Below, piece by piece: positions 34,249 to 49,993 of a stretch of 64,000 nt of DNA. Numbering within the stretch: the stretch's first letter is position 1; every line of letters begins with the position of its first letter. Under the pieces are notes generated by a model, which saw only the letters and a list, made by a program, of their open reading frames with translations, had not been told where the DNA came from and did not search any database. The stretch is taken from NCBI GenBank assembly GCA_030583665.1, contig CP129469.1, forward strand, positions 2,657,043-2,721,042. Direction: 5' to 3'. Origin of the DNA: Candidatus Jettenia sp. AMX2. GTDB taxonomy: Bacteria; Planctomycetota; Brocadiia; Brocadiales; Brocadiaceae. A program made the translations under genes and the position numbers.

Positions 34249-35712
34249 CTACCTCATGAGAAAGACAGACTGCCGGGCTATTTCCATAACCCGAGAAGGG
34301 AAGATACCTAAATGAATCGTGCCGACTACCGAAATAACAACAGCAGCAACGATAAGGGGCGAGATGGTAAGAGGCTGAAATTCTCTTTCGGGATCCCTCA
34401 TATACATAACCGTTACAATGCGCAGATAATAATATACAGAAATAACACTGTTTATCACACCAATGACAGCCAACCCAATATAGCCCGATTTAACGGCGGC
34501 GCTAAAAATATAAAATTTCCCCATGAAACCTGCCGTTGGCGGAATACCTGCCATGGAAAGCAAAAAGAGTGTCATTGCTATTGCCAGGAGCGGATATTTG
34601 TATCCCAATCCCGCATAATCATTAATCTGCATGCACTCATCACCCTTTTGACTCAGTATGATAACAATAGCAAAGGCCCCGATATTCATAAAAACGTATG
34701 TCAGAATATAAAACAATATCCCTGAAACCCCTGTTGTATTTGCCGTTACCAGGGCAATAAGAAGATATCCCGCATGGGCAATACCCGAATATGCCAGCAT
34801 ACGCTTAATATCTGTTTGGGAAATGGCAACAACGTTTCCGACGATCATGGTTAATACCGCAAGGATATAAATAATTATTTGCCACTCATAATGGACAGGT
34901 CCAAATGCCGCTATAAAGATCCGTACAAAGGCAGCAAAGGCAGCGGCCTTGGAACCTACCGCCATAAAGGCTGTAACCGTTGTGGGTGCACCTTCATAGA
35001 CGTCCGGGGCCCATGCATGAAATGGTACCGCCGCAACCTTAAAACCGAGTCCGATAATTATTAGCCCTGTGCCCATAAACAGCAATGGTTTTGAAACTGC
35101 ACCCTTACTCCCAACGATACCGGAAATCTGGCTGAGATTAAGAGAGCCGGTAGCACCATAAATCATTGAGATACCATAGAGCAGAAACCCTGTAGCAAAT
35201 GCACTCAGTAAAAAATATTTCAAAGCTGACTCATTTGATTTGAGTTTTGAGCGGTTGAATCCTATCAGGATATAAATACTGACAGATACGACCTCAAGCC
35301 CGATGTAGATATTTAATAAATCGGCTCCGGATGCCATAAGCATCATACCTATTGTTGAGAACAGGATTAAGGCATAGTATTCACCGTGATTAATCCCTTC
35401 CCGCTTGATGTAATCATGGGATAGCAAGATAACGAGCCCTGCGGTAAGCAAAAAAATAAAGTTGAAAAACAGGGAATAGTTATCAATGATAAAGGACTCA
35501 TCAAAGGCAAATAAGGTCGTCCCGGTAAAACTTCTCGAAAACAGAGCCGCAGCAACGATTCCTGCAAGGGACAGGTAAACCAGGATATGCTTATCACCTG
35601 ATTTTCTTGAAGACAGGACATCCACCAGAAGCACAATCATAGCGAACCCAGCTAAGATTAAAATTGGCAAGATGCTCAGGATGTTAAACGTCATTATCGA
35701 GACATTCGTCAT
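34249..35712 (-). CDS. nuoN: NADH-quinone oxidoreductase subunit N
   Basis: This protein of about 487 residues is multi-helix with the Mrp-antiporter core (ALKYFLLSAFATGFLLYGISMIYGATG, KRMLAYSGIAHAGYLL). It is a proton-pumping membrane subunit of complex I. I place the start at ATG 35712; the upstream TTG adds an unusual leader. It is last in the operon. Confidence 0.93.
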   Translation of the reverse strand: MTNVSIMTFNILSILPILILAGFAMIVLLVDVLSSRKSGDKHILVYLSLAGIVAAALFSRSFTGTTLFAFDESFIIDNYSLFFNFIFLLTAGLVILLSHDYIKREGINHGEYYALILFSTIGMMLMASGADLLNIYIGLEVVSVSIYILIGFNRSKLKSNESALKYFLLSAFATGFLLYGISMIYGATGSLNLSQISGIVGSKGAVSKPLLFMGTGLIIIGLGFKVAAVPFHAWAPDVYEGAPTTVTAFMAVGSKAAAFAAFVRIFIAAFGPVHYEWQIIIYILAVLTMIVGNVVAISQTDIKRMLAYSGIAHAGYLLIALVTANTTGVSGILFYILTYVFMNIGAFAIVIILSQKGDECMQINDYAGLGYKYPLLAIAMTLFLLSMAGIPPTAGFMGKFYIFSAAVKSGYIGLAVIGVINSVISVYYYLRIVTVMYMRDPEREFQPLTISPLIVAAVVISVVGTIHLGIFPSRVMEIARQSVFLMR

Positions 35713-35790
35713 ATATTTAAACCTTTTCCACAAAACAGGGAAAGTAAAAGAATCCCGGACTTTTTATTATCATCAGCCATTTCTCTGATC

Positions 35791-37380
35791 CTACCATTCT
35801 GTTTCAGCCTCAGGAACTATGTCAATTCTGGGAACGGTGACGGCCTTCTCGTCTAACCGTCCATGCGTATGCTGTTTTTGAACATGCGATGCAACGTGCG
35901 TCTTTTCCCCGATTTGCTTTAAAAGATGGTTTACCGAGGCGTCCATTTTTCTCAGAAAGGAATTGGGATAAATACCAATCCAGAAAATCAGGAATACTAT
36001 TGGAATCACAATCGCTAATTCACGCCTGCTCATATCCTTTAACGTCTTATTTTCTTCATGGGTTATTTCATTAAACATAACCCTTTGAAACATCCAGAGC
36101 ATATACACAGCAGCAAGAATAATCCCCGTTGCCGCAATAGATGCATACAGGATACGGGACTTAAATACACCGACAAGAATGAGGAATTCCCCCACAAAAC
36201 CATTGAGTCCCGGAAGACCGATAGAGGACAGGGTAACAATCAGAAAAAAGACCGCAAAAACCGGGATCTGTTTTGTCAGACCCCCAAAGTCTGCAATCAT
36301 TCTGGTATGCCTTCTCTCGTAGAGCATCCCGACGATAAGAAAGAGCGCCCCCGTACTCAGGCCGTGATTAACCATTTGGGTAATACTGCCCTCAATCCCT
36401 TGAATATTAAAGGCAAATATTCCCAGCATAACAAAGCCTAAATGGCTTACACTGGAATAGGCAACAAGTTTCTTCAAATCATCCTGTACCATGGCAACCA
36501 ATGCGCCGTAAATAATGCCAATAATTGCCATCCATGATATTACAGGGATAAAGGCATGACTTACATCCGGAAACAAGGGCAAGCTGAACCGTATAAAACC
36601 GTAAGTTCCCATTTTCAGGAGAACGCCTGCGAGGATAACACTCCCTGCAGTGGGAGCCTCTACATGGGCGTCCGGCAGCCACGTATGAAAGGGAAACATC
36701 GGAACCTTTATGGCAAAAGCAAGAAAGAAGGCTATAAACAGCCAAAATTGTACGGCAAAGGAAAGGTTAAGCTTGTAAAACTCCAGGATACTAAAGGTAT
36801 ATTCACCCGTTGCCCTGTAATGTAGAAAATACAGGGCTATGATTGCAAGGAACATGAATACGCTGCCGGCCGTGGTATAAAGAAAAAACTTTATCGCCGC
36901 ATAAACCCGCCTTGGACCTCCCCAGATACCGATCAACAGATACATGGGAATGAGCATAAGCTCCCAAAATACAAAGAACAAAAACATGTCCAGGGAAATA
37001 AACACTCCGATCATCGCCGTCTCAAGTAACAACATAGCAACCATGTATTCCTTCACATTCTTAGTAATGTTCCAGGAAGCCAGGATTGAAATAGGCGTAA
37101 TAAAGGCCGTCAAAAGTATTAAAAAGAGACTGATACCGTCAATCCCCACATGATAATAGATGCCAAAAGAGGGTATCCACTGCAATTTTTCAACAAATTG
37201 CATCATGTGGGTATTTGAATCAAAACAGAAATAAAGCGGGAGAGAAAGAAAAAATACTAACACCGTGACGAGAAGGGATGTAAACCGGATAAGCTCACGG
37301 TTTTTGGATTCCACGAGGAGAATAAGAAATACTCCTATAACCGGAAGAAAGGTAATTAAAGAAAGAATAGGTACAGACAT
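35791..37380 (-). CDS. nuoM: NADH-quinone oxidoreductase subunit M
   Basis: This 529-residue protein is multi-helix with WELMLIPMYLLIGIWGG, FPFHTWLPDAHVEAPTAGSVILAGVLLKMG and KKLVAYSSVSHLGFV. It is an antiporter-like proton-pumping subunit. GGAG before the ATG supports the start. The gap to the upstream nuoL is 217 bp and carries a MITE-like element. Confidence 0.95.
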   Translation of the reverse strand: MSVPILSLITFLPVIGVFLILLVESKNRELIRFTSLLVTVLVFFLSLPLYFCFDSNTHMMQFVEKLQWIPSFGIYYHVGIDGISLFLILLTAFITPISILASWNITKNVKEYMVAMLLLETAMIGVFISLDMFLFFVFWELMLIPMYLLIGIWGGPRRVYAAIKFFLYTTAGSVFMFLAIIALYFLHYRATGEYTFSILEFYKLNLSFAVQFWLFIAFFLAFAIKVPMFPFHTWLPDAHVEAPTAGSVILAGVLLKMGTYGFIRFSLPLFPDVSHAFIPVISWMAIIGIIYGALVAMVQDDLKKLVAYSSVSHLGFVMLGIFAFNIQGIEGSITQMVNHGLSTGALFLIVGMLYERRHTRMIADFGGLTKQIPVFAVFFLIVTLSSIGLPGLNGFVGEFLILVGVFKSRILYASIAATGIILAAVYMLWMFQRVMFNEITHEENKTLKDMSRRELAIVIPIVFLIFWIGIYPNSFLRKMDASVNHLLKQIGEKTHVASHVQKQHTHGRLDEKAVTVPRIDIVPEAETEW

Positions 37381-37458
37381 CCCGTCACTCCAAAATTCTA
37401 TTTTTATCTCAATTGCTGTATGTTATTAAATAATGAAAACTTTGAAATTCCTACGTAT

Positions 37459-37550
37459 TATAGTCAAAAGTTTCTGTTTTTCGAAAAATACCGGATGAAT
37501 CCCTGGTGTTTATTGGATTAAGCACCGAAAACCTGACTTGTTTGGCTATA
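37459..37550 (-). repeat. 92-bp MITE-like element, copy 2, inside the nuo operon
   Basis: Shares the ends and core of the element at 30635-30726 (TTTTTCGAAAAATACCGG, ATTGGATTAAGCACCGAAAA). It lies in the only large gap of the nuoA-N operon, between nuoL and nuoM. Confidence 0.85.
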
Positions 37551-37597
37551 CATAAAACCTTCAACGACTAAATATCCCTGTAATTTTGGATAAACCC

Positions 37598-39523
37598 TTA
37601 CCAGCCAAGGGCAGCAAGCACAACAATAAATACGCATCCGATTACAATATAAAAGGCATAATTGCGTGTGTATCCTGTTTGTAATAAACGCAAAACAGTA
37701 CTAAGCCATTGAATAAAACGGGCAATACCGTTTACGGATCCATCAATCACCTGGACGTCAACATGTTTCCACAACAGAACGGACATCTTCTTTATCGGTC
37801 TTACAAAGAAAAAGTCATAGATTTCATCAACAAAGTATTTGTTCAGTAAAATTTTATACAGTATCTGAAAACGTCCTGCCAGCATGCCAGGTAACTCGGG
37901 CCTCCTCACGTAAAAATGGTAGGCTGTAAATATACCAGCAACGGCAATAGCCGTTGAAATAACCATCATGAAGTACGGATTACCTCCTGTATGGTGTACT
38001 TCAACCCTGGTTCCGGTAACCCCAACAGCATGAAAGGAGCTAAAGACAGGCGAGAGAAATTTTTCAAGTGCATTCGCACCGGGGATACCCAGAAAACCTC
38101 CAACAATTGACAATCCGGCAAGCACTATAAGCGGGATCGTCATGTTTTTTGGCGACTCATGGAGGTGTTCCATTACGTGGTGATCTACCCTTGATTTACC
38201 ATGGAATGTTACAAAGAGTAAGCGAAACATATAGAAGGCCGTAAAGAAGGCTGCAACGGCAGCAAGAAACCAGTAGAGAAAGTTTCCGTGAGTTAGCGAT
38301 TCCAGCAGTATCTCATCTTTACTGAAAAACCCCGCAAAAGGCGGAACGCCAGCAATAGCAACCGTGCCGATCAGAAAGGTCTTATAGGTAACCGGTATGT
38401 GATGCCTTAACCCCCCCATTTTCCGTATATCCATTTCACCGGATAATGCATGAATCACACTGCCAGACCCTAAAAACAACAGGGCCTTGAAAAATGCATG
38501 CGTTGTAAGGTGGAAAACACCGGCAGTAAAAGCGCCAACACCACAGGCCAGAAACATGTACCCGAGCTGGCTAATGGTGGAATACGCCAATACACGCTTT
38601 ATATCGTTCTGTACCAGTCCAACAGATGCTGCAAAAAGGGCTGTAACAGCGCCGACACACGCAACCACCGTCATGGTGAAAGGAGATAGCATATAAAGGA
38701 CATTACACCGGGCAATCATATAAACACCTGCCGTAACCATGGTCGCTGCATGAATAAGAGCGCTAACCGGCGTAGGGCCTTCCATAGCGTCCGGCAGCCA
38801 TGTGTAAAGCGGTATCTGTGCCGATTTACCCGTCGCACCCATAAACAGGAGAAGGGTAATCACCGTTACCGTAAAGCTCCCCACTACAAAATTTCCATGG
38901 AAAGCTGTATCGAATACCTCGGTAAATTTGATGCTGCCGAATGTCAGGAAGATAAGCAGAATACCCAAGGCAAAACCAAAATCACCGACCCTGTTAACAA
39001 TAAAGGCCTTTTTTGCAGCATCCGAGGCGGATTTTTTCTCAAACCAAAAACCAATTAGCAGATAAGAGCATAACCCGACTGCCTCCCATCCAATAAACAT
39101 AAGGAGAAAATTGTTGCCCAGAACAAGTAACAACATTGAAAAGGTAAATAAATTCAGATAGCAGAAATAACGATGGTACCCCTTATCGTCGTGCATATAA
39201 CCAAGAGAATATATATGGATGAGAAGTCCTACCCCTGTAATAATCAGGGTCATAAGTACCGATAAAGGGTCTATCTGCAGACCTGCGGCTGCTTTAAACG
39301 AACCGGATTCAATCCAGTTAAAGATCTGTTTTTCAAAGAAACGTTCGTGTGGAGGAAAAGAAAGGAGGCTGCAAAATACAAATACCGCAACCAAAAAGGA
39401 CAAACCGACTGACCCGCAGGCAATATAACCTATGGTTTCTTTTTTCAGCCTTTTGCCGGCAATTCCGTTAACAGATGAACCAATTAAGGGGAATAACAGG
39501 ATAAGCGCAACAAAGTCTAGCAT
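37598..39523 (-). CDS. nuoL: NADH-quinone oxidoreductase subunit L
   Basis: This 641-residue protein is the largest antiporter-like subunit, with FIGWEAVGLCSYLLIGFWFEKKSA, PLYTWLPDAMEGPTPVSALIHAATMVTAGVY-type motifs and the long C-terminal region typical of NuoL (HL helix). It follows nuoK after 6 bp. Confidence 0.95.
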   Translation of the reverse strand: MLDFVALILLFPLIGSSVNGIAGKRLKKETIGYIACGSVGLSFLVAVFVFCSLLSFPPHERFFEKQIFNWIESGSFKAAAGLQIDPLSVLMTLIITGVGLLIHIYSLGYMHDDKGYHRYFCYLNLFTFSMLLLVLGNNFLLMFIGWEAVGLCSYLLIGFWFEKKSASDAAKKAFIVNRVGDFGFALGILLIFLTFGSIKFTEVFDTAFHGNFVVGSFTVTVITLLLFMGATGKSAQIPLYTWLPDAMEGPTPVSALIHAATMVTAGVYMIARCNVLYMLSPFTMTVVACVGAVTALFAASVGLVQNDIKRVLAYSTISQLGYMFLACGVGAFTAGVFHLTTHAFFKALLFLGSGSVIHALSGEMDIRKMGGLRHHIPVTYKTFLIGTVAIAGVPPFAGFFSKDEILLESLTHGNFLYWFLAAVAAFFTAFYMFRLLFVTFHGKSRVDHHVMEHLHESPKNMTIPLIVLAGLSIVGGFLGIPGANALEKFLSPVFSSFHAVGVTGTRVEVHHTGGNPYFMMVISTAIAVAGIFTAYHFYVRRPELPGMLAGRFQILYKILLNKYFVDEIYDFFFVRPIKKMSVLLWKHVDVQVIDGSVNGIARFIQWLSTVLRLLQTGYTRNYAFYIVIGCVFIVVLAALGW

Positions 39524-39529
39524 GTAACC

Positions 39530-39832
39530 CTACCATTTCATGATATTGATGTCATCGATATTTACTGTCTCTTTATTTCTAAATACCGCAACAATAATTG
39601 CCAAACCTACAGCAGCTTCAGCCGCAGCTACCGCCATAGTAAAAAAAACAAACAATTGCCCATCCATGGAATTGAGATAATGGGCAAACGATACAAATGA
39701 CAGGTTAACGGCATTGAGCATAAGCTCGATACACATAAAGATTACAATGGCGTTCCTCCGTATCATTACACCAACAACACCAAGGGTAAACAGGATAGAA
39801 CTCAGCACAATATAATGAACTACAGTAATCAT
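39530..39832 (-). CDS. nuoK: NADH-quinone oxidoreductase subunit K
   Basis: This 100-residue three-helix protein has [29 protein letters not shown] and the conserved Glu residues of the E-channel ([17 protein letters not shown]). It lies directly after nuoJ without spacing. Confidence 0.95.
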
Positions 39833-40342
39833 TTATAATTTCCTTTTAGCCAGGATGATTGCACCAATAGCAGCGGCAAAGAGTAACACAGAAACTATTT
39901 CAAACGGCAGGAGATATCTGGTGAATAACAGACTGCCGATTAATTCCGTATTTCCAACACTTGCAAGGTAATCACCTGTATATTCACCTTTTTTGCCGAG
40001 GGTTACCTTTGATTTCAGAATTATACCGATAGCAGAAAGTAAAAGAACACCCATAGCAAGGGCTGGTATCTTTTGAAACGGTAAGGCATCCTTCTCTTCT
40101 TCCTTTACATTTACATTTAGTAGCATAATCACAAAAAGAAAAAGCACCATAATGGCGCCGGCATATACGATAATCTGAACTGCTGCTATAAACTGTGCAG
40201 CAAGCAACAGGTACAGTACCGCAATACTGATCAGCGTCAGGATGAGGTAGAGAGCACAGTAAACCGGATTTCTTTCAAAAATCAGATAAACGCCGGCAAT
40301 TACTGCGACGGCAGCCATAACATAGAATAAATATGCTTCCAT
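39833..40342 (-). CDS. nuoJ: NADH-quinone oxidoreductase subunit J
   Basis: This 169-residue membrane protein has RNPVYCALYLILTLISIAVLYLLLAAQFIAAVQIIVYAGAIMVLFLFVIMLLN-type motifs of NuoJ. It ends next to nuoK and follows nuoI by 23 bp. Confidence 0.93.
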   Translation of the reverse strand: MEAYLFYVMAAVAVIAGVYLIFERNPVYCALYLILTLISIAVLYLLLAAQFIAAVQIIVYAGAIMVLFLFVIMLLNVNVKEEEKDALPFQKIPALAMGVLLLSAIGIILKSKVTLGKKGEYTGDYLASVGNTELIGSLLFTRYLLPFEIVSVLLFAAAIGAIILAKRKL

Positions 40343-40365
40343 AAGGTTATGTAACGTTAAATTTC

Positions 40366-40794
40366 CTAAAAGCTTATTTTCCTTTTTCTCGAAAAATCCA
40401 ACAACTGTTCCTTATCATAAACAACCTTATCACGACAGGTAGACAACTCAAAGGTATCCCTCAGTATTACAGCCCTTACCGGGCAAGCTTCTTCACAAAA
40501 GCCGCAAAAGATGCAACGAAATGAATCTAATTTGTAAATTTTTGGATATCTCCTATCTGTTGTTTCTTCGGTTGCCCCCTCAACGTAAATGCATTGCGAA
40601 GGACAAACCCTGGCACAGAGCCCGCATGCAATACAACGTTCCCTCCCGTCTTTCCCTACCTGTAATTCCGGCAATCCCCGGAACCTTGGTGAAAGCGTTG
40701 GCCTCACATCGGGATACTGTACGGTAACAACCGCTCCTGGATTAAGAAACCTTTTGAGAGTAAGCGCGAGGCCTTTTAGTAAGGGCAAAATCAT
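40366..40794 (-). CDS. nuoI: NADH-quinone oxidoreductase subunit I
   Basis: This 142-residue protein has two [4Fe-4S] motifs (CIACGLCARVCPSQCI and CIFCGFCEEACPVRAV). It passes electrons between the peripheral arm and the quinone site. It starts 1 nt after the nuoH stop. Confidence 0.95.
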   Translation of the reverse strand: MILPLLKGLALTLKRFLNPGAVVTVQYPDVRPTLSPRFRGLPELQVGKDGRERCIACGLCARVCPSQCIYVEGATEETTDRRYPKIYKLDSFRCIFCGFCEEACPVRAVILRDTFELSTCRDKVVYDKEQLLDFSRKRKISF

Positions 40795-40795
40795 A

Positions 40796-41791
40796 TCAGC
40801 TTATAAGCACCATAATAAAAGCAGTTATTACTATATTCAGTAATGCAAGAGGCAATAGAAATTTCCAGCCAAAATACATCAGTTGATCATATCTAAGCCT
40901 GGGATACGTTGACCGTAACCAGATGAAAAAGAACAGGCAGCATGATAATTTTAAGAAAAACCAGACGACCGGAGGAAGGAACGGCCCCTGCCACCCTCCA
41001 AAGAAAAACGTTACTGCAATAGCAGATACCGTAATCATATTGGCATATTCAGCCATGAAGAACATAGCAAATTTCAGGCTGCTGTACTCGGTATGATATC
41101 CGGCAACAAGCTCTGTTTCCGCTTCGGGAAGATCGAATGGAGTACGGTTGACTTCTGCAATAGCACTCACAGCATAAATAAAAAAACCCACCGGTTGCAG
41201 TATGACATTCCAGAGTCCGGTTTGTGCATTTACAATATCCACGAGGCTTAATGATCCTGTCAGCATAATGACTCCGATAAGCGACAAGCCGAGTGTCAAC
41301 TCATAACTGATCATCTGCGCGGCAGACCGTATCCCACCCAATAACGAATATTTGTTATTCGATGCCCAGCCTGCCATAACGATTCCATAAACACCGAGTG
41401 ATGAAACTGCGAAAACATAGAGGAGGCCTACATTAATATCCGTGATAACAAGGTCTATACTGTATCCAAAAATCTTTACCGTATCACCAAATGGTATGAC
41501 TGCAAAGGTAATAAGGGCAGGAATAAGGGTAATAACAGGTGCCAGAACAAAGAGCAATTTGTCTGCTTTTTCCGGAATAATGTCTTCTTTAAAGAGAAGT
41601 TTGATGCCATCAGCCAGCGGTTGTAATATTCCGTGCGGCCCCACACGCATCGGTCCAAGACGAACCTGCATATGAGCCATAACCTTTCTCTCAATCCATA
41701 TCATGGATATAACCATAAGCTGCACTATGCCAAATACCAAAATGACCTTAATGCAACTAATAATAAAATAGATAAAGAATTCTTTATTCAC
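40796..41791 (-). CDS. nuoH: NADH-quinone oxidoreductase subunit H
   Basis: This protein of about 331 residues has the NuoH motifs ERKVMAHMQVRLGPMRVGPHGILQPLADGIKLLFKED and AEVNRTPFDLPEAETELVAGYHTEYSS, which form the quinone chamber. I place the start at GTG 41791 with AGAGG upstream; the longer form adds an atypical leader. It follows the desulforedoxin-like gene. Confidence 0.93.
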   Translation of the reverse strand: MNKEFFIYFIISCIKVILVFGIVQLMVISMIWIERKVMAHMQVRLGPMRVGPHGILQPLADGIKLLFKEDIIPEKADKLLFVLAPVITLIPALITFAVIPFGDTVKIFGYSIDLVITDINVGLLYVFAVSSLGVYGIVMAGWASNNKYSLLGGIRSAAQMISYELTLGLSLIGVIMLTGSLSLVDIVNAQTGLWNVILQPVGFFIYAVSAIAEVNRTPFDLPEAETELVAGYHTEYSSLKFAMFFMAEYANMITVSAIAVTFFFGGWQGPFLPPVVWFFLKLSCCLFFFIWLRSTYPRLRYDQLMYFGWKFLLPLALLNIVITAFIMVLIS

Positions 41792-41929
41792 CCGAATATA
41801 CCTCTTGTTGCCATTCTGAACGAAGCCAGAAACCACGCCCGAAAATACCGCTTTTATCTATCACCTCCGGCTTAGCGGCACATTGGCTTTTTCATCACTT
41901 TCTGAGCCGGATTGCCGTTGTGTATTTTA

Positions 41930-42211
41930 TTATTTCACCACCGTCTCTTCCCTTTGCATCCTCTTTCCGCAACATTCCAATATACCAGTTGTTTCAGCAA
42001 CCACCCTTATCTTTTGCTTGCATATATTACATACAAAAATTGCCCCATTTACCGGTTTGTGATGGACAGATGTCCACGTAGCCATCATTCCTTTGGAACC
42101 AACGAGACTCATTTCCTTACCACAGCAGACCAGTACCCCAAAACCTTCCTCAACAACAACGACTTTTTGCCTGCAAATTTCGCAAAAATATGTTTGATCT
42201 TTTTTTGCCAT
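41930..42211 (-). CDS. Tandem desulforedoxin-like (rubredoxin-type Fe centre) protein within the nuo operon
   Basis: This protein of about 93 residues has two repeats of a Cys motif: CEICRQKVVVVEEGFGVLVCCGKEM (about 10-34) and CNICKQKIRVVAETTGILECCGKRM (about 60-84). CxxC plus CC with GKxM is the signature of desulforedoxin or the N-terminal domain of desulfoferrodoxin, each of which binds one iron by four Cys. I chose ATG 42211, with GAGGA 7 nt upstream, over a longer form. It sits between nuoG and nuoH. It has no clear iron-superoxide-reductase site, so it may transfer electrons or bind iron. Its role in complex I is unknown. Confidence 0.8.
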   Translation of the reverse strand: MAKKDQTYFCEICRQKVVVVEEGFGVLVCCGKEMSLVGSKGMMATWTSVHHKPVNGAIFVCNICKQKIRVVAETTGILECCGKRMQREETVVK

Positions 42212-42270
42212 AAATTTATCCTCATTAGACACCCCTTCTCGGCACAGCCTGCGAAAAGGCATCGAGGTAC

Positions 42271-44937
42271 TTAACGTTCTTTATAAACTCTTACCGGAGT
42301 ATATGTTCCGGTGCGAAGAAGATTGATGGGTACCCATTCATAATCCTCAGATAGGAAAACCATACCAGCCGGTAATCTGCTGGTAATCTTTGCCTTGAGT
42401 TTTATTGAGTCGTGAGTGGATTCAACGCAGACCATATCTCCGTTTTGTATATCCATTCCACTAGCATCTTTCCTGTTTATTTCTACAAAGCATTCAGGAG
42501 CAACCGAGACAAGGGTCTTTGAGTACCTGGAAAAGGTTCCCTGGTGATTCAGACTTGCACCAGCATATAACAAAAACGGAAAACCTGTATTCTTTTTTAT
42601 ACCTGATACCTTAGGTGGTATACACCTGAAGGTATACTTCATTTGTTTATTTTTATCAAATACGGAAGATGCCCAATAGAATTCTTTCCGTTTTAAGCGA
42701 TCATAGTTAATCCCTGTATACATTGGAACAATTCTCTCTATCTCATTCAATATGTCTTTGGCTGATGCATAAGGATAGTTATTTCCCATCTCCCGTGCCA
42801 GTTCACAAATAATCTGCCAATCCGGTTTTGAATCTCCTATAGGCAGAAGAACCTTGTTTAACCGTTGTACAGTCATTCCCATATTCGTAAAAGTGCCTTC
42901 CTTCTCGGCAAAAGTACTTGCAGGGAAAACAACATCGGCAAATTGTGCCGTTTCCGTTAAAAACGCATCCTGAACAACAAGAAAATCTATCTTTTTCAGG
43001 GCTTTGCGCAGCTCCCTGGCTGGTATACACTCCACAGCGGGATTTGTCCCCATAACATAGAGGCCTTTTACCTTCCCCTGCAGGATAAGGTCCAGTACAG
43101 GAACGGACTTGTTTTCGAAAAAGTCAGAGGGAAATGTAATACCCCATAATTTTTCAACTCTTTCCCTGCCCGGCACATCATGGATGTCAACATATCCAGG
43201 GAGGAATTCCGGCACAACCCCCATATCATTTATCCCTTGAGAGTTATTATGGGATCTTGAAAACAAAAGCGAAATCCTGCATGAATTTGTATCCGTATAA
43301 TATGCGGTATTAACCAGGGTACAAAGGTTCATCAATGCCTCTATTGTATCAGAGGCTAACGGGTCTTCCTGTATATCCTTGCCGCAAACAATGATACAAC
43401 GTCCCGGCTTTGCCAATGCTATTGCCGTATCCCGGATTGTTTCTTTGGAGACTCCGGTTAATTGAGAAGCCTTTTTGACATTATAATCATCCAGGAAAGA
43501 AAGCAACTCACGGAAATTATTTGTCCCAGACTCTACCTTGCTGAGATCAACAAGTTTTTTATCAAGAATAACTTTGATCAGGGCATTCACCAATGCAATC
43601 TGACTGCCGGCCGTATAGTGCAGACGAATACTTTTTTTGGCAGTACTTCTGAACACAATATCCCGCATATTAGCAATAATAAGATGCGCATCATTCATCC
43701 GTATAGCTTTTCTTGCCATATTCCCTATTACGGGATGGGCTTCAGTTACGTCTGCTCCAAAAAAGAATAACGTATTTGCAGTTTCCACCTCTTGTAGTGA
43801 TAATGCCGCCAATCCATAAGCAACAGACTTATAAATCAGGCTGTTTAAAGAAGGTGATTTCATATTGGCAAGATTATCAATTGTATTCGTTCCCAACACA
43901 GACCTGCAGAATTTCTGGAAAAGATAATTATCCTCATTCGTAGCTTTCTCAGAGCCAATACCGGCAATTGCTTTCCCCCCGTGTCCGTTGATAACCTGCC
44001 GGAACTTTTCTGATGCATATCTGATAGCTTCCGGCCATGTTGCCGGCAATAATTCTCCATCCTTCCTTATGAAAGGTGTTTTTATCCGTCCTTCTGCATG
44101 GATAAATTCATGACCAAACCTTCCCTTTATACAAAGATTGCCTTCATTTACTCCCAGATGATCATCCGATGTCACCCGTCTGACTGTTTCCTGTCCGCCA
44201 TCCAAAAGCATCGGGACAGACTTTGTATTTACCACAATAGTACATCCCACCGCACAATAAGGACAGATGGTTTGTGTTTTTTTCAGTTCCCAGGGCCTGC
44301 CTCTGAACGCAAAAGATCTGTCTTGCCAGGAACCGGTTGGACAAACAGCCAGACATCCACCACAAAAACTACAGCCCAGCGGCTTATCAAAAGCAGTTCC
44401 AATGTACGTATTGATTCCCCGCTTCTGAAAATCAATAACACCGATACCCTCTATTTCCCTGCATGTACTTACACACCTGCCGCATAAAATACAACGATTG
44501 CGGTTTAACTCCAGGACCGGGTTATCACGGATTATCGGGGCATTCATCCTCACCACGCGAAAGCGGCTTGGAGCCTGATTCAGTTCATGGGTAATGTCCT
44601 GCAAACCACATTCGCCTGCCTTATCACAGGTAGGACAGGAAAGCTCATGATGGGCCAGCAGGTATTCCATTACAGACTTCCGGTATTGAACAACTTTAGG
44701 GGTATTTACCTTTACAATCATACCCTCGGATACAGGATGCGCGCACGCAAACCGATGCCTTGTCCTGCTTTCCGTAACCTCGACCATACAAAGTCTGCAA
44801 CCTCCGAATTGTGAGAGCTTCGGATGATAACACAAACCGGGAATATAAACATTATTATTCAATGCAGCCTGAAATATATTGGTTCCTTCAGGAACAGCAA
44901 TTGGTTTATCGTCAATAACAAGATTCACTATCTTCAT
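42271..44937 (-). CDS. nuoG: NADH-quinone oxidoreductase subunit G (formate-dehydrogenase-like)
   Basis: This 888-residue protein has an N-terminal [2Fe-2S] ferredoxin domain (GLCYHPKLSQFGGCRLCMVEV), a His-Cys cluster, two [4Fe-4S] motifs (CILCGRCVSTC, CSFCGGCLAVC) and a molybdopterin-oxidoreductase core with CPYCAVGC (about 226). The equivalent of the formate dehydrogenase active Cys/SeCys stretch reads NLANMKSPS, with no Cys or His, so it probably lacks formate oxidation. It conducts electrons in complex I. The start overlaps the nuoF stop (ATGA). Confidence 0.93.
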   Translation of the reverse strand: MKIVNLVIDDKPIAVPEGTNIFQAALNNNVYIPGLCYHPKLSQFGGCRLCMVEVTESRTRHRFACAHPVSEGMIVKVNTPKVVQYRKSVMEYLLAHHELSCPTCDKAGECGLQDITHELNQAPSRFRVVRMNAPIIRDNPVLELNRNRCILCGRCVSTCREIEGIGVIDFQKRGINTYIGTAFDKPLGCSFCGGCLAVCPTGSWQDRSFAFRGRPWELKKTQTICPYCAVGCTIVVNTKSVPMLLDGGQETVRRVTSDDHLGVNEGNLCIKGRFGHEFIHAEGRIKTPFIRKDGELLPATWPEAIRYASEKFRQVINGHGGKAIAGIGSEKATNEDNYLFQKFCRSVLGTNTIDNLANMKSPSLNSLIYKSVAYGLAALSLQEVETANTLFFFGADVTEAHPVIGNMARKAIRMNDAHLIIANMRDIVFRSTAKKSIRLHYTAGSQIALVNALIKVILDKKLVDLSKVESGTNNFRELLSFLDDYNVKKASQLTGVSKETIRDTAIALAKPGRCIIVCGKDIQEDPLASDTIEALMNLCTLVNTAYYTDTNSCRISLLFSRSHNNSQGINDMGVVPEFLPGYVDIHDVPGRERVEKLWGITFPSDFFENKSVPVLDLILQGKVKGLYVMGTNPAVECIPARELRKALKKIDFLVVQDAFLTETAQFADVVFPASTFAEKEGTFTNMGMTVQRLNKVLLPIGDSKPDWQIICELAREMGNNYPYASAKDILNEIERIVPMYTGINYDRLKRKEFYWASSVFDKNKQMKYTFRCIPPKVSGIKKNTGFPFLLYAGASLNHQGTFSRYSKTLVSVAPECFVEINRKDASGMDIQNGDMVCVESTHDSIKLKAKITSRLPAGMVFLSEDYEWVPINLLRTGTYTPVRVYKER

Positions 44938-46784
44938 TTGATTGCCATAAAATTACATTTTTCATAACACACATTACATTTAATACATTTTTCCTTATGA
45001 ATAAAGGCAACTTCCTTAGCACTACCGCTTATTGCCTTAACAGGACAATTGCGGATACAGGCCTGGCATTTGGTGCATTTCTCGGGAATCACCTCATATC
45101 TATGAAGGGCAGCACAAGAGGCAGTGGGACAAATCTTATCGCTTATGTGTGCAATATATTCATCCCGGAAATATCTGAGGGTTGATTTTACCGGATTCGG
45201 TGCGGATTGCCCAAGGCCACAGAGGGACATTGTTCTAATCTCATCACACATTTGCTCCAGCACTTCCAGGTCCTTTTCTTCTCCTTTTCCCTGGGTAATC
45301 CGGGTAAGGATGTCAAGCATGAGGGTAGTTCCAATACGGCACGGGGGACATTTCCCGCATGACTCGCTTGCACAGAAACTCATAAAGAACCTGGCCATCT
45401 CCACCATACAGGTAACTTCATCAACAACGACAAAGCTACCGGAACCCATCATTGCACCAGCTCCAACGAGTGATTCGTAATCGATTGGCAAATCCAGCAG
45501 AGATTCAGGCAGGCATCCGCCGGAGGGACCTCCAATCTGCACCGCTTTGAATTTTTTCTTTTTAGGGATACCACCACCAACATCAAACACAATCTGGCGT
45601 ATGCTTACTCCCATCGGAACCTCAACAAGACCTGCGTTCTTTATCTTGCCGGTTAAAGAAAATATCTTTGTCCCTTTACTCTTTTCAGTACCAATCTTCG
45701 CATACCACTCTGCACCTTTGTTGATAACAAAAGGCACATTGGCAAAGGTCTCCACATTATTCAGTAGGGTAGGTTTGTCCCATAGACCCGCTTCGACTGA
45801 CTGCGGAGGCCTTGTGCGCGGCATGCCGCGCTTGCCTTCAATGGAGTTCTGCAGCGCAGTCGATTCACCACAAACAAAAGCACCTGCGCCTTCTTTTACA
45901 AAGATATCAAGACTGTACCCGCTGCTTAATATATTTTTTCCCAGGAAACCATGCTTCCTTGCCTGTTCAATCGTATGTTTTAATCTTTTGACTGCTAACG
46001 GATATTCTGCACGGACATAGATATAACCGCTGGTTCCTTGAATAGCATATCCCGCAATAATCATGCCTTCCAGCACGGAATGAGGATCTCCTTCCATAAG
46101 ACTTCTATCCATAAAAGCACCAGGATCGCCTTCGTCTGCATTGCAAACAACAAATTTTTCATCGGCAGAATATTTAGCACAGGATGCCCATTTCTCACCC
46201 GTCGGAAACCCACCGCCTCCACGGCCCCGGAGACCCGATTTACTTATTTCATGAATTACCTCCTTGGAACTCATCGTTGCAAGCACCTTTTTGAGCGCAG
46301 TATATCCACCCGATGCGATATAATCCTCAATGCTATCAGGATCAATATAGCCACAATTCCTGAGAATAAATTTTTGCTGACCTTTATTCATTTCCAGGTC
46401 TTCGAAAAAAGGCAGGCCATCGTAGGGTATATCTCTGGCTTCTCTTACAGGCATCTGGGATAACGCAAATTTTCTTACTGCCTCTCCCTTTGCTACGTGG
46501 TCTCCTATTATCTGAGGAACCATCGTTTTTTTTACATTTCCATAGGTAACACGTGTACGGCCAGGAAAAATTACATCGACAAGTACTTCATAGGCACACA
46601 TGCCAATACAACCCGTACGGATGATCTCGGCATCCAGCTTTTGTTTTTCCAATTCCTGCTCAATAGCTGACAATACGGTTTTTGCACCGGCACCAAGACC
46701 GCACGTAGCCATACCAATCAATATCTTTGGTTTTTTTATATTGGTTATTTTTTCTGTTCCTGTTATTTCTTCTGTTTTAATCAT
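44934..46784 (-). CDS. nuoF: NADH-quinone oxidoreductase subunit F with extra ferredoxin tail
   Basis: The protein has 616 residues. It has an N-terminal thioredoxin-like [2Fe-2S] part (about 20-110), the FMN/NADH domain (GLRGRGGGGFPTGEKW, CNADEGDPGAF), a [4Fe-4S] site (ESCGKCPPCRIGT) and a C-terminal pair of ferredoxin motifs (CTKCQACIRNCP, CIKCNVCYEKCN). The longer form with both additions resembles hydrogenase-linked (HndC/HydB) NuoF types. It oxidises NADH. Both ends overlap neighbours by 4 nt. Confidence 0.94.
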   Translation of the reverse strand: MIKTEEITGTEKITNIKKPKILIGMATCGLGAGAKTVLSAIEQELEKQKLDAEIIRTGCIGMCAYEVLVDVIFPGRTRVTYGNVKKTMVPQIIGDHVAKGEAVRKFALSQMPVREARDIPYDGLPFFEDLEMNKGQQKFILRNCGYIDPDSIEDYIASGGYTALKKVLATMSSKEVIHEISKSGLRGRGGGGFPTGEKWASCAKYSADEKFVVCNADEGDPGAFMDRSLMEGDPHSVLEGMIIAGYAIQGTSGYIYVRAEYPLAVKRLKHTIEQARKHGFLGKNILSSGYSLDIFVKEGAGAFVCGESTALQNSIEGKRGMPRTRPPQSVEAGLWDKPTLLNNVETFANVPFVINKGAEWYAKIGTEKSKGTKIFSLTGKIKNAGLVEVPMGVSIRQIVFDVGGGIPKKKKFKAVQIGGPSGGCLPESLLDLPIDYESLVGAGAMMGSGSFVVVDEVTCMVEMARFFMSFCASESCGKCPPCRIGTTLMLDILTRITQGKGEEKDLEVLEQMCDEIRTMSLCGLGQSAPNPVKSTLRYFRDEYIAHISDKICPTASCAALHRYEVIPEKCTKCQACIRNCPVKAISGSAKEVAFIHKEKCIKCNVCYEKCNFMAIK

Positions 46785-47284
46785 ACCTGGGGAATCCCGG
46801 ATTCTTTCATTTGTTTTATTACCATATCAACATCATCTGAGGTCAGTTTTCCATGTATATCCTCATCCACCATCATAACAGGGGCCAAAGAACAAGCACC
46901 CAGGCATGCCACTTCTTCTAAAGTAAATAAGGAATCCTTCGTTGTTGCACCCACCGGAACATCTAATATCTCACTCAGTTTCCCGGTAATCTTCTTGGCA
47001 CCTTTCACATGACAGGCTGTCCCGCAGCACACCTTCAGGATATGCTGTCCCCGCGGTATAAGGTGGAATTGTGCATAGAATGTGGCAACCCCGGTTATTT
47101 CACTTGCACTCATATTCAGTCTTTCCGCGATATAATAAACTGCGGATTCGGGCAAATAACCATATGCGACCTGGACCTGCTGTAAAATGGGAATAAGTGA
47201 ACCTCTCTGTCCCTCATATTTTCTCAGTATCTTCTCTACATCAGAAAGGTCGGTTACCTGATTCTGCATCAGTTTCTCATTCAT
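46781..47284 (-). CDS. nuoE: NADH-quinone oxidoreductase subunit E
   Basis: This 167-residue protein has the thioredoxin-like [2Fe-2S] fold with the four Cys in CCGTACHVKGA and EVACLGACSLAPVMMVDE. It works with NuoF in the NADH-oxidising arm. It starts 141 bp after the nuoD stop, a gap where I see no clear element. Confidence 0.94.
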   Translation of the reverse strand: MNEKLMQNQVTDLSDVEKILRKYEGQRGSLIPILQQVQVAYGYLPESAVYYIAERLNMSASEITGVATFYAQFHLIPRGQHILKVCCGTACHVKGAKKITGKLSEILDVPVGATTKDSLFTLEEVACLGACSLAPVMMVDEDIHGKLTSDDVDMVIKQMKESGIPQV

Positions 47285-47425
47285 CCTGTAAGCCCATAAT
47301 TGTTTTGATCTTTATAAATACATGAAACATATAAAGTATGTGAAAAACCTATTATAACGCACGGTAAATAAATTGTAAAATAATTACGGCAAATTTACCG
47401 GAAAGCTCCATACTATCTACAGGTT

Positions 47426-48610
47426 TTAGCGGTCAATTTCCCCTAAAACAATATCCAGGCTCCCTATTGTGGCAACTACGTCCGGAAGTAATTTACCTTC
47501 TACCATTTTCGGTAAAGCTTCGAGATTAACAAAAGAAGGGGGCCGTATTCTCAGGCGGTATGGACAACCGGAACCGTCGCTGATAATATAAAAACCCAAT
47601 TCACCTTTAGGGGCTTCAATACTTACATAGACCTCCCCTTCCGGCGGGCGGATACCCTCAATAATGAGCTTAAAATGGTGAATCATAGCCTCCATCTTTG
47701 TTTCCACATCTTCCTTCGGGGGTAATGTAACCCTCGGAATATGGGCAGTAATATCTCCTTTGGGAAGTATGTCAATTGCCTGCCGAACAATACTGTTACT
47801 CTGACGCATTTCTTCAATACGTACACAATACCGGTCATATACATCCCCGTTTTTCCCTACAGGAATTGTAAAATGATATTTATCATATCCGGAATAGGGT
47901 TCTGATTTCCTTATATCCCAGTTTACTCCGGAACCCCGCAAGCTTGGACCGCTTAATCCGTAATTAATTGCATCTTCAGCAGTAATAACACCAACACCAA
48001 CCGTACGTTTTTTCCATATAGGATTGTCTGTCAGGAGGGTCTCGTATTCATTAAGCCGTGAAGGAAACTCAGCAACAAACTTACTGGTTCTCTCCAAAAA
48101 ACCAGAAGCCAGATCCTTCGCAATACCGCCAATCCGTATAAACGATGTATGCATTCTCGCCCCGGAAATCAACTCGAAGAGATCGTAAAGGGTCTCACGC
48201 TCCCTAAAACAGTAAAAGAATACCGTCATAGCACCAATGTCCAATGCATGGGTTGCTAACCATAGTAAATGGGATGATATCCTTGTAAGTTCACAGAGAA
48301 GTACCCGGATATGTTGCGCCCGTTCCGGGATCTCAATACCAAGCAGTTTCTCAACGGCAAGGGCATAGGCCAGATTGTTCGAAAAAGGAGCAACATAATC
48401 CAGCCGGTCTGTAAGCGGAATAAATTGGTGATAGGTTTTAGTTTCGGCAAGCTTCTCCACGCCTCTATGGAGGAATCCGATATGAGGCATAGCTTTTATA
48501 ATCACTTCACCATCAAGTTCCAGCAAAAGCCTCAGCACACCATGGGTACTGGGATGTTGCGGCCCCATATTAATGGTCATTATATGCGTCGTTTTAACCG
48601 GAGCTTCCAT
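47426..48610 (-). CDS. nuoD: NADH-quinone oxidoreductase subunit D
   Basis: This protein of about 394 residues has NMGPQHPSTHGVLRL, HIGFLHRGVEKL, TDRLDYV and the C-terminal R-I-R-P-P-S-F block of the 49-kDa quinone-binding subunit. I chose ATG 48610, which overlaps the nuoC stop. Confidence 0.95.
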   Translation of the reverse strand: MEAPVKTTHIMTINMGPQHPSTHGVLRLLLELDGEVIIKAMPHIGFLHRGVEKLAETKTYHQFIPLTDRLDYVAPFSNNLAYALAVEKLLGIEIPERAQHIRVLLCELTRISSHLLWLATHALDIGAMTVFFYCFRERETLYDLFELISGARMHTSFIRIGGIAKDLASGFLERTSKFVAEFPSRLNEYETLLTDNPIWKKRTVGVGVITAEDAINYGLSGPSLRGSGVNWDIRKSEPYSGYDKYHFTIPVGKNGDVYDRYCVRIEEMRQSNSIVRQAIDILPKGDITAHIPRVTLPPKEDVETKMEAMIHHFKLIIEGIRPPEGEVYVSIEAPKGELGFYIISDGSGCPYRLRIRPPSFVNLEALPKMVEGKLLPDVVATIGSLDIVLGEIDR

Positions 48611-49110
48611 CACTCTTTACCCTTTCGGTACCTGTCGTAAAGTGTTGATGGTTGCCTCCTGTCAGCTGGATAGTCCTTTCTCAAGGGATAACCTTCAAAG
48701 TCATCAGGGGTAAGTATCTTTCTGAGATCGGGATGTCCCTCGAATATAATGCCAAACATATCGTATGCCTCTCTCTCATGCCAGTCAGCGGTTTTCCAGA
48801 TAGTAGTTACTGTTGGTATACGAGGTTCAGCAGATGATATCGGTACCTTGATACGCACACGGTGATTTTTCTCTATTGAATAGAGATGATAAACCACCTC
48901 AAAAACACCATCCGTTTCTACCCGGTCAACACCACATAAATCTGACAAAAAATGAAAACACAGATCCTTATCATTCTTAAGGAATCCGGCAATTTCAATA
49001 AGATATTCCTTTTTTATAGAAAAGGTTAATTCGTTACGAAATATGCCTGAATCTGTAACTGCTTCAGAAAACCTGGTCTTTATTACTGCCGCAATAGCCT
49101 CATTATCCAT
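48610..49110 (-). CDS. nuoC: NADH-quinone oxidoreductase subunit C
   Basis: This protein of about 166 residues has the 30-kDa subunit motif [39 protein letters not shown] near the C-terminus. I place the start at ATG 49110; a TTG-led longer form from 49134 is also open. It is coupled to nuoD. Confidence 0.93.
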
Positions 49111-49169
49111 TGTTCTTCTGTAACTATTAACCAATATATTAAGGTAGCTAAAATTCTCTTCTCTTATTC

Positions 49170-49649
49170 TTACCTGTTTTTTTCAAATGTTTCTTTTTCA
49201 ATTTTTTTTTGTATTTCCATAAGGGCATGGATTAATGCCTCAGGTCTGGGTGGACATCCCGGGAGATATATATCCACTGGCATGACCTGATTTATTCCCT
49301 GTACAACACTATAACTATTATAAATACCTCCGGATATTGCGCATGCTCCCATAGCAATAACCCATTTGGGTTCCGGCATCTGATCATAAATTTTTCTTGC
49401 AACAGAAGCCATCTTGTAAGTAAGCGTTCCTGCAACAATCATCAGGTCAGATTGCCGAGGAGAAAACCGGAACACCTCAGCTCCAAACCTTGCAAGGTCA
49501 TGACGGGGAGCAACAACTGCCATCATCTCTATAGCACAACAAGCCAGCCCAAATGGCATAGGCCAGAGAGAAGATTTGCGGGCCCAGTTTACCATTGTCT
49601 CCAGGGTAGTAGTCAATATATTATCGCCTAAACGGCTTTCTACTCCCAT
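49170..49649 (-). CDS. nuoB: NADH-quinone oxidoreductase subunit B
   Basis: This protein of about 159 residues has the tandem-Cys motif [12 protein letters not shown] and [14 protein letters not shown], which hold the N2 [4Fe-4S] cluster. I chose ATG 49649 because GGGGAGG lies before it; it overlaps the nuoA end by 10 nt. Confidence 0.95.
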
Positions 49650-49993
49650 TCCAGCCCTCCCCTTTTCCAGATATATACATAACAAACAAATAAAACTCCT
49701 ACAAAAATCAGGATCTCAATGAATCCAAATAATTTTAATGATTGAAATGCAACCGCCCATGGGTACAGAAAAATAACCTCTATATCAAAGATTACAAAAA
49801 GCATGGCAATAAGATAAAATTTAACAGAAAAACGCTCATGCGCTGAACCTGCAGGATCAATACCACACTCATAAGGAGTAAGCTTTTCAGATGTAGGCTT
49901 TTGTGTTCCCAAAAGTGCAGAAAGTATTATATTGGTAACCGCAAAACCTGAGGCTACTACTAATAATATAAATATTGGTAAATATTGTCCCAT
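49640..49993 (-). CDS. nuoA: NADH-quinone oxidoreductase subunit A
   Basis: This 117-residue three-helix membrane protein has the conserved [40 protein letters not shown] segment. It opens the operon. No Shine-Dalgarno site lies before its ATG, and a strong promoter ends only about 9 nt upstream, so the transcript may be leaderless. Confidence 0.95.

What the first reader, a model, noticed from the sequence alone, without database searches (positions are those of the whole stretch)
41930..42211. Tandem desulforedoxin-like protein inside the complex I operon
A small protein with two CxxC...CCGKxM domains lies between nuoG and nuoH, with operon-like spacing and its own ribosome site. Desulforedoxin domains bind iron with four Cys, but I know of no standard complex I subunit of this kind. 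It could be an extra electron carrier, an iron donor for Fe-S assembly or a redox sensor of the complex.
Basis: partly seen in the sequence, partly recalled or inferred. Interest (0 to 1): 0.65.

Follow-up and report, generated by a model that had tools for sequence, protein, structure and literature searches.

The report
Tandem desulforedoxin in anammox complex-I operon
Anammox bacteria carry, inside the gene cluster for the respiratory NADH-oxidising complex I, a small and very well conserved protein with two predicted iron-binding desulforedoxin domains; in one Scalindua group the same gene sits instead beside an NADH-rubredoxin reductase-like gene and peroxide-scavenging genes, so it is probably an overlooked electron carrier drawing electrons from NADH.

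Summary
On the minus strand at 41930-42211 a 93-aa protein (here "Dsrx") carries two desulforedoxin domains, each with the exact CX2C-X15-CC motif, between nuoG and nuoH of a complete 14-subunit complex I operon. It is ancestral in two anammox families: 29 of 33 Brocadiaceae-like (f1) and 14 of 17 Scalindua-like (f4) genomes have it, and no other genome in the class does. All eight cysteines and 34 of 93 residues are invariant, and dN/dS is 0.06-0.10. In 37 of the 43 genomes it lies in the nuo operon, often 3-6 nt after nuoG and overlapping the nuoH start. In six genomes forming one Scalindua clade it has moved, once, into an operon with an NADH:rubredoxin-oxidoreductase-like flavoprotein, a rubredoxin-desulforedoxin fusion and two rubrerythrins. 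No genome has it in both places. The shared element is an NADH-oxidising flavoprotein. Best reading: a two-centre, rubredoxin-like electron carrier fed from NADH, via the complex I arm ancestrally or via the reductase in the moved clade, probably toward O2- and peroxide-scavenging diiron proteins. A bound complex I subunit is the main rival. Metal, electron partners and co-purification remain untested.

The parts
41930..42211 (-). dsrx: 93-aa tandem desulforedoxin protein
   Evidence: ORF and translation; PF06397 x2 and TIGR00319; orthologues in 43 genomes
42104..42208 (-). Desulforedoxin domain 1 (residues 2-36), Cys10, Cys13, Cys29, Cys30
   Evidence: PF06397 residues 3-36; predicted fold matches D. 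gigas desulforedoxin 1dxg, 0.5 A over 36 residues, 50% identity
42041..42103 (-). Linker (residues 37-57) with invariant M42 M43 W46 T47 P53 G56
   Evidence: Invariant columns in 43 genomes, kept also in the relocated copies
41948..42040 (-). Desulforedoxin domain 2 (residues 58-88), Cys61, Cys64, Cys80, Cys81
   Evidence: Second PF06397 stretch, same CX2C-X15-CC spacing; all four Cys invariant
42219..42223 (-). GAGGA ribosome-binding site of dsrx
   Evidence: Read from sequence, 7 nt before ATG
42271..44937 (-). nuoG (888 aa), upstream neighbour
   Evidence: PF00384, PF04879, PF10588, PF22117
40796..41791 (-). nuoH, downstream neighbour (start set from homologues; the longest ORF begins at 41836)
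   Evidence: PF00146 E=1.2e-134; homologues begin at about residue 16 of the ORF
34249..49993 (-). Whole nuoA-N operon (14 subunits) holding dsrx
   Evidence: ORFs, Pfam for NuoE, F, G, H and tblastn synteny with relatives

Best explanation
Dsrx is a small, apparently cytoplasmic (no signal peptide evident) two-centre electron carrier of the rubredoxin/desulforedoxin type. Each CX2C-X15-CC domain should hold one Fe(Cys)4 centre, so the protein can store or relay two electrons one at a time. It takes electrons from an NADH-oxidising flavoprotein. In Brocadiaceae and most Scalindua that would be the NuoEFG arm of complex I, with which it is encoded. In one Scalindua clade it would be an NADH:rubredoxin-oxidoreductase-like enzyme. 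It hands them most likely to diiron O2- and peroxide-scavenging proteins (rubrerythrins, flavodiiron proteins). In the window organism it would thus act as an electron outlet or safety valve of complex I. Shown: gene, domains, conservation, operon linkage, single relocation, neighbours. Inferred: iron rather than zinc, redox role, donor, acceptor, direction.
For: All eight Cys and 34/93 residues are invariant in 43 genomes, and dN/dS is 0.06-0.10, close to the neighbouring nuo genes. Domain 1 of the AF2 model (mean pLDDT 81) overlays D. gigas desulforedoxin at 0.5 A over 36 residues. The gene is in the nuo operon in 37/43 genomes, commonly 3-6 nt after nuoG and overlapping the nuoH start by 0 to 8 nt. 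In six genomes forming one clade (support 100/99) it sits in an operon TatSOR / NROR-like / Dsrx / rubredoxin-desulforedoxin fusion / rubrerythrin A / rubrerythrin B. NROR identity rests on Pyr_redox_2 plus Rubredoxin_C. No genome has it in both homes; where examined (G029, G032) the emptied nuoG-nuoH junction is closed up. The shared feature of both homes is an NADH-oxidising flavoprotein. Published reduction potentials of most desulforedoxin-like centres are about 0 mV (PMC7482061), too high for the NADH-to-menaquinone path but fit for an outlet to rubrerythrin or flavodiiron proteins. A survey reports class A flavodiiron protein and rubrerythrin genes in all anammox species (PMC10156729).
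Against: No metal, spectrum or activity is known; such Cys4 sites can also bind Zn. The relocated copy has neighbours that already include a rubredoxin-desulforedoxin carrier, so Dsrx there could do something else. Genomes with an ordinary rubredoxin also keep Dsrx, so it is not a simple rubredoxin replacement. The window genome has no recognisable superoxide reductase, so a SOR acceptor is unlikely there. No known complex I donates electrons to a desulforedoxin (own knowledge; literature search empty).
Confidence: 0.5

Rival explanations
1. Dsrx is a lineage-specific accessory subunit stably bound to anammox complex I, with Fe or Zn centres that have a structural or stabilising role, comparable in kind to the zinc-binding accessory subunit NDUFS6 of mitochondrial complex I.
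For: Fixed position between nuoG and nuoH across two families, translational overlap with nuoH, conservation as strong as core subunits: dN from window to Scalindua 0.18, against 0.36 for NuoI, 0.26 for NuoE and 0.20 for NuoH, and an invariant MM-x2-WT linker that could be a docking surface.
Against: Six Scalindua genomes moved it out of nuo into an NROR/rubrerythrin operon yet kept the linker; families f5, f2 and f3 have complex I genes without it.
Confidence: 0.25
2. Dsrx is a stress-protection redox partner (for rubrerythrin, flavodiiron protein or superoxide reductase) that sits in nuo only for co-expression; complex I itself does not reduce it, and a soluble NROR does.
For: Relocation to the NROR/rubrerythrin operon; NROR-like proteins (about 31% identity) also exist in the window genome and many relatives.
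Against: Persistent nuo linkage in 37 genomes, surviving insertions on either side, is hard to explain by co-expression alone; Kuenenia has no recognised NROR in the published table (PMC10156729) but the Kuenenia-like genomes (g10) keep Dsrx in nuo.
Confidence: 0.13
3. Iron donor or metallochaperone for Fe-S cluster insertion into complex I.
Against: Fully coordinated Fe(Cys)4 sites hold iron tightly (own knowledge); the relocated operon contains no Fe-S assembly genes.
Confidence: 0.05
4. Redox or O2 sensor, or zinc-ribbon regulator, of complex I or of the nuo operon.
For: Zinc-ribbon-like weak Pfam matches below cut-off.
Against: No DNA-binding or signalling domain; neighbours in the second home are electron-transfer enzymes.
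Confidence: 0.07

Closest known systems
Desulforedoxin (D. gigas Dx; PF06397 / TIGR00319; PDB 1dxg)
   Same: Each domain has the same CX2C-X15-CC site; domain 1 is 50% identical with predicted fold rmsd 0.5 A over 36 residues.
   Different: Dx is a 36-residue single-domain protein (a homodimer, own knowledge); Dsrx is a covalent tandem with a conserved linker of about 20 residues and lies in a complex I operon.
Desulfoferrodoxin (Dfx, superoxide reductase with N-terminal Dx domain)
   Same: N-terminal Dx domain (1vzg, 2ji1-2ji3).
   Different: Dsrx lacks the catalytic PF01880 domain; in its place is a second Dx domain.
Rubredoxin-desulforedoxin fusion of Scalindua (77 aa, found here)
   Same: Two-domain Fe-Cys4-type protein with a C-terminal Dx domain; its operon also hosts the relocated Dsrx.
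   Different: N-terminal domain is rubrerythrin-type rubredoxin (PF21349), not Dx; never found in nuo here.
NADH:rubredoxin oxidoreductase / rubredoxin / rubrerythrin or flavodiiron systems of anaerobes
   Same: Proposed logic: NADH to flavoprotein to Fe-Cys4 carrier to diiron scavenger; the relocated operon has these kinds of part.
   Different: In the ancestral home the flavoprotein would be complex I itself; not demonstrated.
Zn-binding accessory subunit NDUFS6 of mitochondrial complex I
   Same: Small metal-site protein linked to complex I (own knowledge).
   Different: No match to it among the family or structure hits seen here; Dsrx has two Dx domains and can leave the operon.

Membership tests
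Desulforedoxin domain family (PF06397 / TIGR00319) | Profile match above curated cut-off | tested here: met
   55.4 bits vs 23; 46.3 vs 36.05
Desulforedoxin domain family (PF06397 / TIGR00319) | Four-Cys site CX2C...CC in each domain, conserved | tested here: met
   C10/13/29/30 and C61/64/80/81 invariant in 43 genomes
Desulforedoxin domain family (PF06397 / TIGR00319) | Dx fold | tested here: met
   Domain 1 vs 1dxg: 0.5 A, 36 residues, Z 4.5; domain 2 not separately matched
Desulforedoxin domain family (PF06397 / TIGR00319) | Binds Fe as Fe(Cys)4, redox active | not testable with these tools
   Needs protein
Desulfoferrodoxin / superoxide reductase | Catalytic PF01880 domain | tested here: not met
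   No PF01880 match in the protein; TIGR00320 35.5 bits vs cut-off 146.9
Rubredoxin (PF00301) | Rubredoxin profile match | tested here: not met
   Not among matches at E<=10
Complex I (NDH-1) subunit | Encoded in nuo operon with conserved synteny | tested here: met
   37 of 43 genomes
Complex I (NDH-1) subunit | Present wherever the related complex I is present | tested here: not met
   f5 and f2 nuo operons examined lack it, with nuoG adjoining nuoH; f3 also lacks it
Complex I (NDH-1) subunit | Co-purifies stoichiometrically | not testable with these tools
   No proteomic data held; the Kuenenia complexome paper was not found in the library

The most novel reading that the evidence does not exclude
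Anammox complex I (Brocadiaceae and Scalindua) is a branched enzyme: beside NADH/menaquinone it reduces a dedicated tandem-desulforedoxin carrier encoded inside its own operon, an NADH:desulforedoxin outlet feeding diiron O2, NO or peroxide scavengers. The Scalindua relocation swaps complex I for a soluble NADH:rubredoxin oxidoreductase as the donor.
Probability: 0.25. Interest if true: 0.82.

Novelty: new variant of a known kind. Interest (0 to 1): 0.6.

Why it matters
The electron transport system of anammox bacteria is still debated, including which way complex I runs and how NADH-derived electrons reach oxygen-defence enzymes when Kuenenia has no recognised NADH:rubredoxin oxidoreductase (PMC10156729). 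A conserved Fe(Cys)4-type protein in the complex I operon of two anammox families, not reported in the literature searched here, is a concrete candidate for that link. The natural experiment in Scalindua (one gene, two alternative NADH-flavoprotein homes) makes the idea directly testable.

Tried and rejected
Chance ORF: rejected (conservation, dN/dS). Forward-strand reading: no family match. Superoxide reductase partner in the window organism: rejected for this genome, no PF01880 at E<=0.001, although most relatives have it. Dsrx as the only rubredoxin of the cell: rejected, an ordinary rubredoxin exists (G000:C1:2339505-2339645). My first idea that Dsrx replaced the rubredoxin-desulforedoxin fusion in Scalindua: corrected; the fusion is still there next to Dsrx in G029 and four further genomes, and only in G032 does it look broken or degenerate. 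Dsrx as a marker of all hydrazine synthase-bearing Brocadiales: rejected, f2 and f5 genomes match HZS_alpha but lack Dsrx. Four Dsrx-negative Brocadiaceae-like genomes (G002, G006, G007, G389): nuoG/nuoH junction not found assembled, so not counted as losses; in f4, G385 showed only NuoG matches of 36% or less, and G415 and G417 were not examined. Structure search beyond 1dxg and SORs gave nothing meaningful; domain 2 and the linker were barely tested. Literature: no paper combining desulforedoxin with complex I/nuo or with anammox, none with the Kuenenia nuo-region locus tags as I remember them.

Full report
WHAT IS THERE. The interval 41930-42211 holds, on the minus strand, a 93-aa ORF with ATG, a GAGGA ribosome site and a stop codon. 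It lies in a full nuoA-N operon (34249-49993, minus strand) between nuoG and nuoH, 59 nt after the nuoG stop and 138 nt before the nuoH start as set by homologues. Pfam PF06397 matches both halves (E=4.7e-15) and NCBIfam TIGR00319 is over its cut-off. Each half has CX2C-X15-CC, the spacing of D. gigas desulforedoxin. It is the only protein of the window genome with a PF06397 match over the cut-off.

PHYLETIC RANGE. Searching all 75 held genomes of the class with a profile of orthologues finds the protein in 43: 29 of 33 genomes of family f1 (records named Brocadia and Loosdrechtia; f1 also holds the Kuenenia-like g10, by inference) and 14 of 17 of family f4 (Scalindua), none in f2, f3, f5 or the other families of the class. 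Across 392 Planctomycetota genomes only these families have it, apart from two weak matches: one single-Dx protein in f2 and one unrelated-looking tandem protein in G177. The four f1 genomes without it also lack an assembled nuoG-nuoH junction: G006's nuoG is cut by a contig end, no nuoG orthologue was found in G002, G007 and G389, and nuoH is missing from G006 and G007 and only partial in G002. Some f2 and both f5 genomes match hydrazine synthase alpha but lack Dsrx, so Dsrx does not follow that family across the order.

SYNTENY. All 29 f1 copies lie in nuo: directly after nuoG, or 1.0-1.2 kb after it in two g10 genomes (G010, G019), where in G010 an antitoxin-like ORF intervenes. Eight f4 copies are also in nuo (G026, G035, G037, G397, G408, G409, G413, G416). 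Gaps of 3-6 nt from nuoG, and overlaps of 0 to 8 nt with the nuoH start, are common, a sign of translational coupling. Insertions of 0.6-1.2 kb occur on one side or the other in several genomes, but the gene stays in the operon.

THE RELOCATION. In six Scalindua genomes (G029, G032, G410, G411, G412, G414) the gene is elsewhere. In G029 and G032 nuoG directly adjoins nuoH with 120 and 174 nt between; the nuo operons of the other four were not fetched. In all six Dsrx lies just after an NADH:rubredoxin-oxidoreductase-like gene (Pyr_redox_2 plus Rubredoxin_C, with a C-terminal zinc-ribbon-like tail below cut-off), followed by a 77-aa rubredoxin-desulforedoxin fusion (PF21349 + PF06397; degenerate in G032), two rubrerythrin-family proteins (PF02915), and in G029 and G032 a single-domain desulforedoxin. 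A TAT-signal-bearing PF01880 superoxide-reductase-like protein precedes them wherever the contig reaches, and a P-type ATPase-like and a cytochrome oxidase-like (CcoNO) gene follow (the last two names are my reading of the sequence). The copies form one clade with 100/99 support beside the nuo-linked Scalindua copies. The simplest history is an ancestral nuo location and one move. No genome has both. In the nuo-linked Scalindua examined (G026, G035, G037) the orthologous NROR-like operon has the rubredoxin-desulforedoxin fusion but no Dsrx.

CONSERVATION AND STRUCTURE. 34 of 93 residues, including all eight Cys and linker residues M42, M43, W46, T47, P53, G56, are invariant in 43 genomes. dN/dS to three relatives is 0.06-0.10 (dS is near saturation, so rough). 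From the window to Scalindua, Dsrx (dN 0.18) is at least as conserved as NuoE, NuoH, NuoI and NuoK. The AlphaFold2 model has mean pLDDT 81 and pTM 0.72. Domain 1 overlays desulforedoxin 1dxg with 0.5 A over 36 residues. Relative placement of the domains was not examined.

MECHANISM. Desulforedoxin centres are one-electron Fe(Cys)4 sites; most measured ones sit near 0 mV, with +240 mV in one enzyme (PMC7482061). That is above menaquinone, so Dsrx is unlikely to be an in-line stop between NADH and menaquinone (inference from standard potentials). It would fit an outlet carrying NADH-derived electrons to high-potential acceptors. A survey reports class A flavodiiron and rubrerythrin genes in all anammox species, lists no desulfoferrodoxin, and gives no NADH:rubredoxin oxidoreductase for Kuenenia (PMC10156729). 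The two homes of the gene share one thing: an NADH-oxidising flavoprotein encoded next to it. I therefore commit to an NADH-linked two-centre electron carrier (0.5), with a bound accessory subunit of complex I as the main rival (0.25). These are not fully exclusive: a docked carrier could be both. Metal, donor, acceptor and location are inferred.

KNOWN OR NEW. The domain is known; the tandem orthologous family, its fixed place in complex I operons and its alternative place in an NROR/rubrerythrin operon were not found in the literature held here, which lacks most subscription papers, including the Kuenenia complexome study. I rate it a new variant of a known kind.

Noticed in passing
L046:9052-9285, L153:5130-5363, L154:5569-5802, L152:5574-5807: A 77-aa two-domain protein in Scalindua fuses a rubrerythrin-type rubredoxin domain (PF21349) to a desulforedoxin domain, beside an NROR-like gene and rubrerythrin-family genes in every case examined.
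   Followed up: partly
L047:8715-8991: In G032 the rubredoxin-desulforedoxin fusion next to the relocated Dsrx looks split and degenerate, as if being lost (or an assembly error).
   Followed up: no
G000 whole genome: No superoxide reductase domain (PF01880) found in the window's single-contig genome nor in G005 and G017, although a published survey says all anammox species have superoxide-reduction genes (PMC10156729).
   Followed up: partly
window 44934-46784: NuoF is 616 aa with an extra C-terminal 2x[4Fe-4S] ferredoxin domain and an N-terminal extension, resembling NADH-oxidising subunits of multimeric hydrogenases more than textbook NuoF; it could be an additional electron port.
   Followed up: no
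window 42271-44937: NuoG has molybdopterin oxidoreductase, Fe4S4 and dinucleotide-binding domains all over cut-off, i.e. looks formate dehydrogenase-like.
   Followed up: no
L140:10294-13947: In Scalindua-like G029, one of the genomes where Dsrx left the nuo operon, nuoF is duplicated in tandem.
   Followed up: no
G026:C128:2553-3507 and G035:C99:3855-5093: Single-domain desulforedoxin genes lie within about 1 kb of superoxide reductase genes in Scalindua, as if desulfoferrodoxin were split into two proteins.
   Followed up: no
G009:C187:46-198 and G009:C4:6174-6281: Partial extra copies of Dsrx near a contig end and near nuoH in G009, suggesting a partial tandem duplication between nuoG and nuoH.
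   Followed up: no
L150 / L107:1645-1905 (G177): Another tandem desulforedoxin-like protein (86 aa, two PF06397 stretches) occurs in an unrelated planctomycete family, next to a single-domain one.
   Followed up: no
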